Shown here one piece after another: positions 39,445-42,162 of a DNA stretch of 64,000 nt. The DNA is from Caballeronia glathei. GTDB taxonomy: Bacteria; Pseudomonadota; Gammaproteobacteria; Burkholderiales; Burkholderiaceae. The stretch covers positions 1-64,000 of the forward strand of contig NZ_JFHC01000010.1 of assembly GCF_000698595.1 (NCBI RefSeq). Direction: 5' to 3'. A model generated the notes under the pieces. It made no database searches, was not told the origin of the DNA, and was given only the letters and a program-made list of their open reading frames with translations. Within the stretch, counting starts at the first letter, position 1, and each line of letters begins with the position of its first letter. A program made the position numbers and the translations under genes.

Positions 39445-40164
39445 TCAGGCCCCGAGGAGCAGGAATATCGCCGGGCGCTTGTGCAGATCGGGCGCCGGCT
39501 TCTTTTTCCAGTCGGCGACGGTGCGCGTGACGATCGTCTCCGCCGGCAGCGTCAGGTCGACGGCGACGCAAACGAGCGTCGACGGCGCGCAGGTCGCGAT
39601 GAGCGTGTCGAGAAGCGCGCGATTGCGGTACGGCGTCTCGATGAAAATCTGCGTCTGACTGGCCTTGCGCGAGAGCTGTTCGAGTTCGCGCAGCCGCTTC
39701 GCGCGCTCGGCCGCGTCGACGGGCAGATAGCCGTTGAACGCGAAGCTCTGTCCGTTCATGCCCGATGCCATCAGCGCGAGCAGGATCGAACTGGGGCCGA
39801 CGAACGGCACGACCTTCACGCCCCGCTCGTGCGCGCGCCGCACGAGGAGCGCGCCCGGATCGGCCACGGCGGGGCAGCCCGCTTCCGAGACGAGCCCGGC
39901 ATCCGTGCCGCCGAGAATCGGCGCGAGCAGTTTCTCGACCTCGCCGGGCGGCGTGTTGACGTTCAGTTCGCGCACCTCGATTTCCTGAATCGGGCGCTCG
40001 GTGCCGACCTTTTTCAGGAACGCTCGGGTCGTCTTGGCGTTTTCGCCGATGTAGTAGGTGAGCGCCGCGGCCTGCGCGCGCACCGGTTCGGGCAGGACCT
40101 GCGCGAGGGCGTCGGCGTCGCCCTCGCCGAGCGTGTTCGGAATCAGGTAGAGGACACCGCTCAT
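39445..40164 (-). CDS. Tetrapyrrole methylase family protein (RsmI-like SAM methyltransferase)
   Basis: A 239-residue protein of the tetrapyrrole methylase fold, with the segments LYLIPNTLGEG at the start, VSEAGCPAVADPG near 98 and VPFVGPSSILLALMASG following. RsmI, which methylates the ribose of C1402 in 16S rRNA, has the same pattern (VSDAGTPLISDPG), but this protein is shorter and diverges around it, so it may be a paralogue with another substrate. The ATG overlaps the maf stop (ATGA). Confidence 0.8.
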   Translation of the reverse strand: MSGVLYLIPNTLGEGDADALAQVLPEPVRAQAAALTYYIGENAKTTRAFLKKVGTERPIQEIEVRELNVNTPPGEVEKLLAPILGGTDAGLVSEAGCPAVADPGALLVRRAHERGVKVVPFVGPSSILLALMASGMNGQSFAFNGYLPVDAAERAKRLRELEQLSRKASQTQIFIETPYRNRALLDTLIATCAPSTLVCVAVDLTLPAETIVTRTVADWKKKPAPDLHKRPAIFLLLGA

Positions 40165-40769
40165 GCCGCCCCCAGCAACGGAAAGCCCGCCGCGCGCAGC
40201 ATCCGCGACAGTTCGATGAGCGGCAGGCCGACGAGCGCGGTCGGGTCGCGCGAGTCGATTGCGTCGAGGAGCGCAATGCCCAGCCCCTCCGACTTGGCGC
40301 TTCCGGCCACGTCGTACGGTGTTTCGGCGCGCAGATACGCTTCGATTTCGGCGTCGGACAGGTCGCGAAACTGCACGTGCGTCACGATATCCGCCGACTG
40401 GACGTGCCCCGTGCGGCTGTCGAAGAGGCACAGCGCGCTGTGAAACGCGACGCTGCGGCCGCGCATCGCCCGCAGTTGCGCGACGGCCTTCTCATGCGTG
40501 CCGGGCTTGCCGATCTGCCGGCCGTCGAAGGTCGCCACCTGGTCGGAGCCGATCACGAGCGCGCCCCTCGCTTGGCCCGCGGCCGCGCGCGCCTTCGCAA
40601 CCGACAGCCGGATCGCCGTGGTCTCGGGGGCTTCGTTCTCGAGCGGCGTTTCGTCGATATCGGGCACGATCACGTCAAAGGGCACGCGAAGGCGCTCGAG
40701 CAGTTCACGGCGATAGCGCGAACTGGACGCGAGAACGAGGCGCGGCGGCGGGTTTGGAGCGTCGGACAT
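40161..40769 (-). CDS. Maf-like nucleotide pyrophosphatase, YceF type
   Basis: A 202-residue Maf-family enzyme. The start LVLASSSRYRRELLERL, the DETPLENE segment and the catalytic GSDQVATFDG are visible; the SDQV form with the DG pair resembles E. coli YceF, which splits 7-methyl-GTP. Maf enzymes remove modified nucleotides to keep them out of RNA and DNA. The ATG at 40769 (MSDAPNP) is chosen because the frame upstream is unlike the family. Confidence 0.9.
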   Translation of the reverse strand: MSDAPNPPPRLVLASSSRYRRELLERLRVPFDVIVPDIDETPLENEAPETTAIRLSVAKARAAAGQARGALVIGSDQVATFDGRQIGKPGTHEKAVAQLRAMRGRSVAFHSALCLFDSRTGHVQSADIVTHVQFRDLSDAEIEAYLRAETPYDVAGSAKSEGLGIALLDAIDSRDPTALVGLPLIELSRMLRAAGFPLLGAA

Positions 40770-40840
40770 GAATGGAATCGACTGATGAGCGGTGGAAAAG
40801 TGGACGGGAACGGTCGCGCTGCGAGCCATCCCTTAAGTGT

Positions 40841-40869
40841 TTGACTCGAAAAGACAAAGCCGATATGAT
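40841..40869 (+). promoter_or_regulatory. Near-consensus sigma-70 promoter of the yceD-rpmF-plsX-fab array
   Basis: TTGACT (40841-40846) and TATGAT (40864-40869) are separated by 17 bases, each one base off consensus. Transcription should begin near 40876, giving a leader of about 240 bases before yceD. Confidence 0.85.
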
Positions 40870-40894
40870 TTTGGGCTTTTCATCGTTATGCCGC

Positions 40895-41088
40895 GGTGTG
40901 GTTTGCAGATGAATTCGCAGGTCTTTCGCGTAGGCCTGAATGAAGGCGGCGCGGCAAAACGGATGTAAAAAAGGGTTGGATGGCCGGCGGGGTGACGAAA
41001 GATCCGGGCAAACCACACCAGCCGGAACGAGGAGCGCGGTGCATACTGGCACATCCCGGAGTAACCCCCGGCCTAACCGACACCGCGC
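40895..41088 (+). ncRNA. Structured RNA leader upstream of yceD-rpmF (candidate regulatory leader)
   Basis: Three stems can be drawn from the sequence. Outer stem: GGTGTGGTTTGC (40895-40906) pairs perfectly over 12 bases with GCAAACCACACC (41008-41019). Inside it, GGTCTTTCG (40920-40928) pairs with CGAAAGATCC (40996-41005) with one bulged base. After it, GCGCGGTG (41034-41041) pairs perfectly with CACCGCGC (41081-41088). All lie between the promoter and the yceD ribosome site. I know of no named family with this layout. It may be a ribosomal-protein leader sensing L32, or a free RNA. Confidence 0.6.
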
Positions 41089-41117
41089 GACATGACGCGG
41101 CACATGCAGGAGCGCAC

Positions 41118-41771
41118 ATGACCCAAAATCCTGGCAAACCTGCGAGCCCCGCCGATCTGCGCGCGCTCGACATCTTCGAATTCGCGCAGAGCGGGCGGCA
41201 AGCCGCTGGCGGCGTGCGGGTCTCGCAACTGCCGCGCATGTTAAACGAAGTCCCGTCGGATGCGCCAGATCGCGATACCGTGTTCACCTGGCAAGCCGAA
41301 GGGTCGACCCAGCCCGAATTGCAGGACAACGGCATCGAGGCGCCGCAGCCTTATCTGCGGCTCGCGGTGCATGGTTCGGTCTGGATCGAGTGTCAGCGGT
41401 GTCTTTCGCCGTATTCGCAGCATCTGGATGTCGATGCGACCTATCGCATCGTGGCGACGGAAGAAGAAGCAGACGAATATCCGCTCGACGACGATGAAGT
41501 CGAGGTGATCGTGGGCTCGCGTCAGTTCGATCTCGTCGACTTGATCGAAGAGGAGTTGTTGTTGTCCTTGCCGCTCGTGCCCAAGCACGACGTGTGTCCC
41601 GAAGTGCACGAGAGCCTGGTGTCGGGCGTCGAAGGCGCGGAGGGCGAGCCCGACGAGGGTCTGCAAAACGGTGGCGAAGGCGCATCGGCGGGTGACGAGC
41701 CCGCGAGGCCGAACCCGTTTGCCGCGCTCGAAAAGCTCAAGCAGGGCGGTCCCGGCGACAAGAAGCATTAA
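41118..41771 (+). CDS. yceD: YceD family protein (DUF177), large-subunit rRNA accumulation
   Basis: A 217-residue protein. The family's cysteine pattern C-x-R-C (ECQRCLSPY, near 95) and the acidic stretch ending LIEEELLLSLPLVPKH, with a late cysteine in DVCPE, are present. YceD homologues help 23S rRNA or L32 assembly; rpmF follows it in most proteobacteria. GCAGGAG precedes the ATG at 41118. The C-terminal tail is acidic then basic. Confidence 0.9.
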   Translation: MTQNPGKPASPADLRALDIFEFAQSGRQAAGGVRVSQLPRMLNEVPSDAPDRDTVFTWQAEGSTQPELQDNGIEAPQPYLRLAVHGSVWIECQRCLSPYSQHLDVDATYRIVATEEEADEYPLDDDEVEVIVGSRQFDLVDLIEEELLLSLPLVPKHDVCPEVHESLVSGVEGAEGEPDEGLQNGGEGASAGDEPARPNPFAALEKLKQGGPGDKKH

Positions 41772-41875: not shown

Positions 41876-42055
41876 ATGGCAGTTCAGCAAAACAAGAAGT
41901 CGCCGTCGAAGCGCGGCATGCACCGTTCGCACGACTCTCTCAACGCCGCGCCGCTGGCCGTTGAGCCGAGCACGGGTGAGGTGCATCTGCGTCACCATGT
42001 GAGCCCGAACGGCTACTACCGTGGCAAGAAAGTCGTCAAGACGAAGAACGACTGA
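41876..42055 (+). CDS. rpmF: 50S ribosomal protein L32
   Basis: A 59-residue basic protein starting [20 protein letters not shown], the L32 signature, with the tail GYYRGKKVV. It binds 23S rRNA in the large subunit. CTGGAG precedes the ATG by a short spacer. It lies between yceD and plsX in the standard order. Confidence 0.98.
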
Positions 42056-42136: not shown

Positions 42137-42162
42137 AGGCGGCATTTCACTGCCGCTTTTTT
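42137..42162 (+). terminator. Terminator between rpmF and plsX
   Basis: GCGGCA and TGCCGC enclose a six-base loop and are followed by six T. The stem is short, so termination is probably partial and lowers plsX relative to L32. Confidence 0.7.

What the first reader, a model, noticed from the sequence alone, without database searches (positions are those of the whole stretch)
40895..41088. Structured RNA leader of the yceD-rpmF-fab array
Seen in sequence: a 12-base perfect long-range pairing (40895-40906 with 41008-41019), a nested 9-base stem with one bulge (40920-40928 with 40996-41005), and a separate perfect 8-base stem (41034-41041 with 41081-41088). All lie between a near-consensus promoter (40841-40869) and the yceD ribosome site. 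I know of no named RNA family with this architecture upstream of L32. Inference: a leader by which L32, YceD or a metabolite controls ribosome and lipid genes together.
Basis: partly seen in the sequence, partly recalled or inferred. Interest (0 to 1): 0.75.

Follow-up and report, generated by a model that had tools for sequence, protein, structure and literature searches.

The report
Fast-evolving leader with a 5'-end stem

Summary
All three stems exist at the stated coordinates, but only the 12-bp one exceeds chance (7 of 5000 shuffles). They are not a conserved leader RNA. Of 44 Caballeronia-type leaders, only the window can form the 12-bp helix. The 9-bp stem was not found in the four nearest relatives, the 8-bp stem gets no support in 51 leaders, and Rfam has no match. 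The 3' arm of the 12-bp helix is the core of a Caballeronia block (CGGGCAARCCACRCC) at a near-fixed distance from GTGCATACTG, while the flanks vary widely. That looks like DNA (operator plus -10) rather than RNA structure. What the family does seem to keep is another stem: nucleotides +4 to +18 of the predicted transcript pair with downstream leader more than shuffles allow (mean z -1.43, 96 leaders; about 0 from +13 on). The partner differs between clades; in Burkholderia s.s. both sides change together in some species. With one vote per independent cluster the signal is modest (p about 0.0009), and Paraburkholderia shows no covariation. The likeliest role is 5'-end protection of the mRNA. 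A conserved terminator between rpmF and plsX speaks against joint control of L32 and lipid genes. No evidence was found for sensing of L32, YceD or a metabolite.

The parts
40841..40869 (+). sigma-70-type promoter (-35 TTGACT 40841-40846, -10 TATGAT 40864-40869); predicted start of transcription about 40875 (plus or minus 2)
   Evidence: exactly TTGACT/TATGAT in 67 of 81 leaders (window plus 80 named loci), variants in the other 14; start site predicted, not mapped
40877..40891 (+). 5' arm (+4 to +18, counting the G at 40874 as +1) of the family-type 5'-proximal stem; here UUUUCAUCGUUAUGC (commonest form in relatives UUUUCAUCGGUAUGC)
40879..40913 (+). local 5' hairpin 40879-40884/40908-40913 (UUCAUC/GAUGAA), same kind as UUCAUCGG/CCGAUGAA of several Caballeronia
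   Evidence: pair probability 0.51 when the RNA runs to 41160, 0.001 or less in the two shorter RNAs; relatives' versions
40884..40961 (+). rival helix 40884-40895/40950-40961 (11 of 12 pairs), best partner of the window's 5' arm; cannot be nested with the 12-bp helix
   Evidence: (p 0.03 for arm +8..+26)
   Evidence: 1 of 44 leaders
41001..41021 (+). Caballeronia block AATYCGGGCAARCCACRCCWG (operator-like; inference), containing the 3' arm of the 12-bp helix
   Evidence: 44 of 51 leaders score at least 14 of 19; spacing to GTGC 38-39 nt in 41 of 44, 49-50 in 3 of 44
   Evidence: not supported in relatives
41039..41048 (+). conserved motif GTGCATACTG (possible -10 CATACT of an internal promoter; inference)
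   Evidence: 48 of the 51 leaders selected by this motif carry it letter for letter, while the 5' arm varies; every named locus titled Caballeronia is among them
41106..41117 (+). ribosome-binding region GCAGGAGCGCAC
   Evidence: sequence; same or nearly the same letters in the relatives' leaders shown (output was cut)
41118..41771 (+). yceD (DUF177), 217 aa
   Evidence: start; matches in 289 of 299 genomes of the family
41876..42055 (+). rpmF (ribosomal protein L32), 59 aa
   Evidence: located in 80 of 80 named relatives
42138..42162 (+). intrinsic terminator between rpmF and plsX (GGCGGCA-loop-TGCCGC-T6)

Best explanation
The region is the fast-evolving 5' leader of the yceD-rpmF messenger. 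It has a promoter kept across the family, a 5' end kept in a stem, a middle free to change, and, in Caballeronia, a DNA-like block near its 3' end. The kept element is the ability of nucleotides about +4 to +18 to pair with some downstream leader segment; the partner is local or distal and differs between clades. Most likely the stem shields the 5' end from RppH and RNase E and so lengthens the life of the messenger. Shown by computation: the stems and their non-conservation, the position-specific excess of 5'-arm pairing, and some paired changes in Burkholderia s.s. Inferred: the start site, protection from decay, and the substitute role of the 12-bp helix.
For: Arm +4..+18 against the downstream leader: 95 cluster representatives, Fisher p 3e-19, 32% below p 0.05; controls: reversed arm Fisher 0.64 (7% below 0.05), promoter segment 0.17 (4%), interior segment 0.12 (8%, n 89). 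Sliding the arm: mean z -0.61 at +1..+15, -1.43 (se 0.13) at +4..+18, -1.18 at +7..+21, -0.53 at +10..+24, and between -0.23 and +0.35 from +13 on, in 96 leaders; at +4..+18 Caballeronia -1.79, Burkholderia -2.10, Paraburkholderia -0.78, others -1.23. One vote per independent cluster: 27 clusters, median Fisher p 8.5e-4 over draws (5-95%: 2.3e-4 to 3.6e-3); the same arms against upstream DNA 0.28 and against yceD coding DNA 0.19. Swapping arms between species: native pairs better by 1.30 kcal over 54 distinct arms, p 0.0002; Caballeronia p 0.036, Burkholderia 0.025, others 0.0008; interior controls 0.11 to 0.91. Paired changes at the same place in Burkholderia: CGGCAGGC/GCCTGCCG, CGACAGGC/GCCTGTCG (L115, L121), CGATGGGT/ACCCGTCG (L198). 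The 12-bp helix is possible only in the window (1 of 44). A review (PMC3997798, passages) states that RppH and RNase E rely on single-stranded 5' ends and that 5' structure stabilises mRNA.
Against: The pairing was first noticed by eye. A first test with arm +8..+26 gave a weaker excess (9% of 118 leaders below p 0.05; median 0.27). Under Stouffer's method the promoter control is also slightly low (0.044). The window itself is not significant with arm +4..+18 (p 0.84), only with +8..+26 (p 0.03). Paraburkholderia: no effect in the swap test (p 0.44 and 0.69), and its long-range helix shows no covariation (re-dealt arms do as well in 790 of 2000). With the shorter arm +4..+15 the swap test is not significant in any group (p 0.12 to 0.69). 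Burkholderia paired counts do not clearly beat re-dealing (183 of 2000, partner chosen by complementarity), and L193 changed only one side. Many leaders share ancestry. No start site or half-life is known.
Confidence: 0.5

Rival explanations
1. Conserved cis-acting RNA that binds L32, YceD or a metabolite and controls the operon.
For: Leader of about 243 nt from the predicted start; in B. cenocepacia 75% of 5' UTRs are 17-126 nt (PMC4603805, passages). The 12-bp helix exceeds shuffles (7 of 5000).
Against: Named stems are not conserved; no consensus fold in 51 aligned Caballeronia 3' blocks (-2.3 kcal/mol); no Rfam match; middle of the leader hypervariable in sequence and length; no terminator-like site in the leader.
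Confidence: 0.05
2. In Caballeronia the 3' part of the leader is a second, regulated promoter: an activator site (AATYCGGGCAARCCACRCC, about -53 to -35) upstream of a -10 (CATACT). The 3' arm of the 12-bp helix is the site's core, and the 5' arm is an inverted second copy beside the main promoter. This can coexist with the 5' stem.
For: Spacing from block to GTGCATACTG is 38-39 nt in 41 of 44 and 49-50 in 3 of 44 (+11, apparently two separate insertions), while the distance from the start to the block is 73-276 and from GTGC to ATG 43-149. The 16-17 nt between are not conserved. GTGCATACT is kept while the 5' arm takes many forms, so it is not held by pairing with it.
Against: CATACT is a poor -10, the hexamer 17 nt upstream (CAGCCG) is no -35, and the promoter scan did not call the site. 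No regulon: one hit with fewer than 2 mismatches in the genome, 272 hits at up to 3 mismatches against 271 for the reversed pattern; CGGTGCATACTG is not enriched either (17 against 22). GTGCATACT is in none of the other 96 leaders (grouping).
Confidence: 0.35
3. The whole leader is neutral spacer; the 12-bp repeat is a mutational product (template switch or inverted duplication) and the 5'-arm signal reflects sequence composition and shared ancestry.
For: Hypervariable middle with short tandem duplications (by eye); 14 of 515 window segments hold a perfect repeat of 12 bp or more; cluster-level p only about 0.0009.
Against: The signal is confined to arms starting at +1 to +10, seen in all four groups, and absent or much weaker with three control arms and two control targets; native arms beat swapped arms.
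Confidence: 0.25

Closest known systems
5'-terminal stabilising stem-loops of E. coli mRNAs (ompA, papA type)
   Same: Pairing close to the 5' end of a messenger; expected to hinder RppH and RNase E (PMC3997798, passages; Emory 1992, Bouvet and Belasco 1992, Bricker and Belasco 1999 seen there as reference entries only; the link to ompA is recalled).
   Different: Partner not fixed: local in Burkholderia and many Caballeronia, distal in Paraburkholderia and the humi clade. By the helices, 2 to about 15 nt would stay unpaired at the 5' end. No stability data.
Ribosomal protein leaders (r-leaders)
   Same: Leader in front of an operon with a ribosomal protein gene.
   Different: No conserved fold found. 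In the survey PMC7247131 (word search in the main text) L32 and DUF177 do not occur and rpmF appears once, in the row of an L31 leader of Corynebacteriaceae.
Activator-dependent bacterial promoters
   Same: Short block at fixed spacing, with variants one helical turn longer, upstream of a -10-like motif.
   Different: No known operator recognised (from memory, not searched); no enrichment of the block elsewhere in the genome.

Membership tests
Ribosomal protein leader (r-leader) | conserved secondary structure with covariation in front of the gene | tested here: not met
   named stems; no consensus fold in the Caballeronia 3' block:
Ribosomal protein leader (r-leader) | match to a described family | tested here: not met
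   Rfam 15: window and 20 related loci
Ribosomal protein leader (r-leader) | binding of L32 to the leader | not testable with these tools
   needs binding assay or probing
Riboswitch or attenuator | conserved aptamer sequence and structure | tested here: not met
   middle of leader hypervariable; Rfam none
Riboswitch or attenuator | terminator or other switchable expression platform in the leader | tested here: inconclusive
   no terminator-like site in 40870-41117; translational switching not tested
[quoted passage not shown]
   for the family as a group and relative to a predicted start site; the window alone is ambiguous (p 0.84, 0.03)
5'-terminal stabilising stem | pairs kept by compensatory change | tested here: inconclusive
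   double changes in Burkholderia and swap test for; Paraburkholderia and the re-deal control against
5'-terminal stabilising stem | longer mRNA half-life because of the stem | not testable with these tools
   needs half-life measurements
Internal activator-dependent promoter (Caballeronia) | fixed spacing between site and -10 | tested here: met
Internal activator-dependent promoter (Caballeronia) | further sites of the same regulator in the genome | tested here: not met
   (own genome only)
Internal activator-dependent promoter (Caballeronia) | transcription start downstream of the -10 | not testable with these tools
   needs 5'-end mapping

The most novel reading that the evidence does not exclude
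A family-wide 5' clamp with a roaming partner: across Burkholderiaceae the yceD-rpmF messenger keeps its first about 20 nucleotides paired, but the partner strand is re-invented in each lineage (loops of 3 to 237 nt). Selection would then act on pairing itself and not on a homologous structure, a form of RNA conservation that ordinary covariation searches miss. In the window two such clamps overlap and could form a pseudoknot (40884-40894/40951-40961 with 40895-40906/41008-41019).
Probability: 0.35. Interest if true: 0.55.

Novelty: new member of a known kind. Interest (0 to 1): 0.33.

Why it matters
If true, it shows that a leader can hold a functional RNA feature without any homologous helix, so 'no covariation' does not always mean 'no structure'. 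It would also give a simple account of how an operon for L32 and the rRNA-linked protein YceD sets its mRNA level, and it corrects a plausible but unsupported claim of an L32 or metabolite sensor.

Tried and rejected
Long-range pairing of the 5' arm with GTGCATACTG: good in the sordidicola and humi clades, rejected as the reason for the motif's conservation because GTGCATACT stays the same while the arm changes. Long-range helix AUCGGUAUGC/GCAAACCGAU of Paraburkholderia: a 3' element was found in 31 of the 40 leaders that the filter let in (3 of the 9 misses are of Burkholderia type), but without covariation; variants such as those of L060 and L093 break a pair. Third stem CGGTG/CACCG: no support. 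A consensus RNA fold of the Caballeronia block: none (its z-score of -6 rests on a -2.3 kcal/mol consensus and I do not use it). A regulon of the block, of GTGCATACTG, or of the 5' element: no enrichment for the first two; the 5' element gave 45 hits against 13 for the reversed pattern at up to 3 mismatches, but only one with fewer than 2, and this was not followed up. In one search a narrow pattern left out many leaders and mis-registered two; one search repeats the test on the 44 leaders whose block scores at least 14 of 19. In one search the coordinates of two helices, and those of the GTGCATACTG pairing, were off by one; those lines are not used. The first duplex test is reported above. 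Papers: the listings (9 of 9 papers shown; 20 of 195; 11 of 11; 10 of 10; 10 of 787) showed no title on this leader; the rest of the long lists was not seen, and only the held open-access library was searched.

Dropped rows: L143 (no start codon assigned), L189 and L025 (no leader extracted), leaders shorter than 88 nt and shorter than 120 nt, 3 of 30 clusters without enough leader sequence, identical leaders (150 to 147). Group names Caballeronia, Burkholderia, Paraburkholderia and others in the scripts are assigned by leader motifs (GTGCATACT; CGCTTTTC start; CGCAGGAGCGCACATG or like end), not by taxonomy.

Full report
What was checked. The window lies in a Caballeronia-like genome: the named relatives with the highest YceD identity are C. 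terrestris, C. humi and C. telluris (91-92%, which may leave out records very near the window). The maf open frame (40161-40829, minus strand; start perhaps at 40769) diverges from yceD (41118-41771), rpmF (41876-42055), plsX and the fab genes (gene names recalled from the protein sequences, not from a call). Only the 12-bp one exceeds dinucleotide shuffles (7 of 5000); the full leader is not unusually stable (z -0.02). Its predicted probability depends on how much RNA is present: 0.997, 0.44 and 0.013 for ends at 41020, 41117 and 41160.

Relatives. After removing identical ones, 147 leaders remained. The promoter is exactly TTGACT/TATGAT in 67 of 81 leaders (window plus 80 named) and a variant in the other 14. 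The transcript start GGCTTTTCATCGG is kept in most of those shown. Behind it the leader changes fast in length and sequence, often by short tandem duplications (by eye).

The 12-bp helix. Its 3' arm, GCAAACCACACC, is the core of a block found in 44 of 51 Caballeronia-type leaders. Its 5' arm is found only in the window: in 44 leaders tested, 1 (the window) has p below 0.05, no other reaches a pairing score of 10 of 12 (G-U counted half), and the median p is 0.85. The nested 9-bp stem was not found in C. humi, terrestris, telluris or arationis: its 5' arm matches at most 7 of 9 there, though a 9-of-10 match to the 3' arm occurs elsewhere in the telluris leader. The 8-bp stem has no more support than its reversed control in 51 leaders.

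The Caballeronia block. The distance from the block to GTGCATACTG is 38 or 39 nt in 41 of 44 leaders and 49 or 50 in 3 of 44, although the 16-17 nt between are not conserved. The distances on either side range from 73 to 276 nt (start to block) and 43 to 149 nt (motif to ATG). The +11 cases appear to come from two separate insertions (L053 with L079; L056). A fixed spacing that changes by about one helical turn is typical of protein sites on DNA, so I read it as a possible operator plus -10 of an internal promoter. Against this, the -10 is poor, no -35 is present, the promoter scan did not call it, and neither part is enriched elsewhere in the genome.

The 5' stem. Reading the leaders side by side, I saw that the start of the transcript is complementary to something downstream in many clades: UUCAUCGG/CCGAUGAA in several Caballeronia, UCGGUAUGCG/CGCAUACCGA in the sordidicola clade, AUCGGUAUGC/GCAAACCGAU in Paraburkholderia, AUCGGUGUGC/GCAUGCCGAU in Trinickia (L073), UCGGCAGGC/GCCUGCCGG in Burkholderia s.s.. 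Because this was seen by eye, I tested it in several ways. A first test with arm +8..+26 was weak (9% of 118 leaders below 0.05, against 5% and 3% for two controls). With arm +4..+18, 95 cluster representatives give Fisher p 3e-19; the three control arms give 0.64, 0.17 and 0.12, though one of them (promoter segment) has 0.044 by Stouffer's method. Sliding the arm shows a peak at +4..+18 and +7..+21 in all four groups; pooled, nothing is left from +13 on (96 leaders), although the nine Burkholderia leaders still have -0.72 at +13..+27. The same arms do not pair unusually with upstream DNA or yceD coding DNA. One vote per independent cluster leaves p about 0.0009 (27 clusters). Native arms beat arms swapped in from other species (54 distinct arms, p 0.0002), but not in Paraburkholderia (p 0.44), nor in any group with the shorter arm +4..+15 (p 0.12 to 0.69). 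In Burkholderia the two sides change together at the same place in L115, L121 and L198, while L193 changed one side only; the re-deal control is reached in 183 of 2000. I therefore hold the 5' stem as likely but not proven.

The window's own 5' end. Its arm has UCAUCGUUAUGC where the commonest form in relatives is UCAUCGGUAUGC, and the +4..+18 test gives p 0.84. With arm +8..+26 the best partner is around 40950-40961 (p 0.03). The 12-bp helix begins where this arm ends, so it may be the lineage's substitute. The two helices cannot be nested; they could only coexist as a pseudoknot.

Function. The review PMC3997798 (passages only) says that RppH and RNase E rely on single-stranded 5' ends and that 5' structure stabilises mRNA; this is the mechanism I think most likely. 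In B. cenocepacia 75% of 5' UTRs are 17-126 nt (PMC4603805, passages only), so these leaders are on the long side. The listing of PMC5049393 (start of abstract) links DUF177 to 23S rRNA accumulation, which makes a yceD-rpmF unit sensible. A terminator between rpmF and plsX is present in 73 of 80 named relatives by a strict pattern; six of the seven misses show it to the eye with a small change, and L105 does not. So the leader chiefly serves yceD and rpmF, and joint control with the fab genes is doubtful; read-through was not measured.

Verdict. Observation confirmed; interpretation partly supported at best. The 12-bp stem is a species-specific feature, no sensor is indicated, and the more interesting point is a 5' stem whose partner seems to move.

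Noticed in passing
L023 and L025 (first 40 codons of yceD); also L024: In two unnamed same-genus genomes (L023, L025) yceD leaves its frame at the same place near codon 28, where the DNA is 4 nt shorter than in L020; in L024 it breaks near codon 40. In one search two of these genomes (G017, G015) and G318 match only from residue 25 on, in an open frame.
   Followed up: partly
window 42138-42162: Conserved intrinsic terminator between rpmF and plsX (strict pattern in 73 of 80 named loci).
   Followed up: partly
leader of L025/L030 (one genome), GTCAGTGCATACTGAGCACTGAC: One leader turns the GTGCATACTG region into an 8-bp perfect hairpin; not searched for in the others.
   Followed up: no
L044 and other Paraburkholderia leaders, last 45 nt: Many Paraburkholderia leaders share CGGCGAAATCCTTGCCG, a small hairpin directly before the ribosome site, with variants that keep CGGC/GCCG (by eye).
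   Followed up: no
G000, 45 places: GGCTTTTCATCGKTATG with up to 3 mismatches occurs 45 times against 13 for the reversed pattern; only this locus has fewer than 2 mismatches. May be coding bias; not examined.
   Followed up: no
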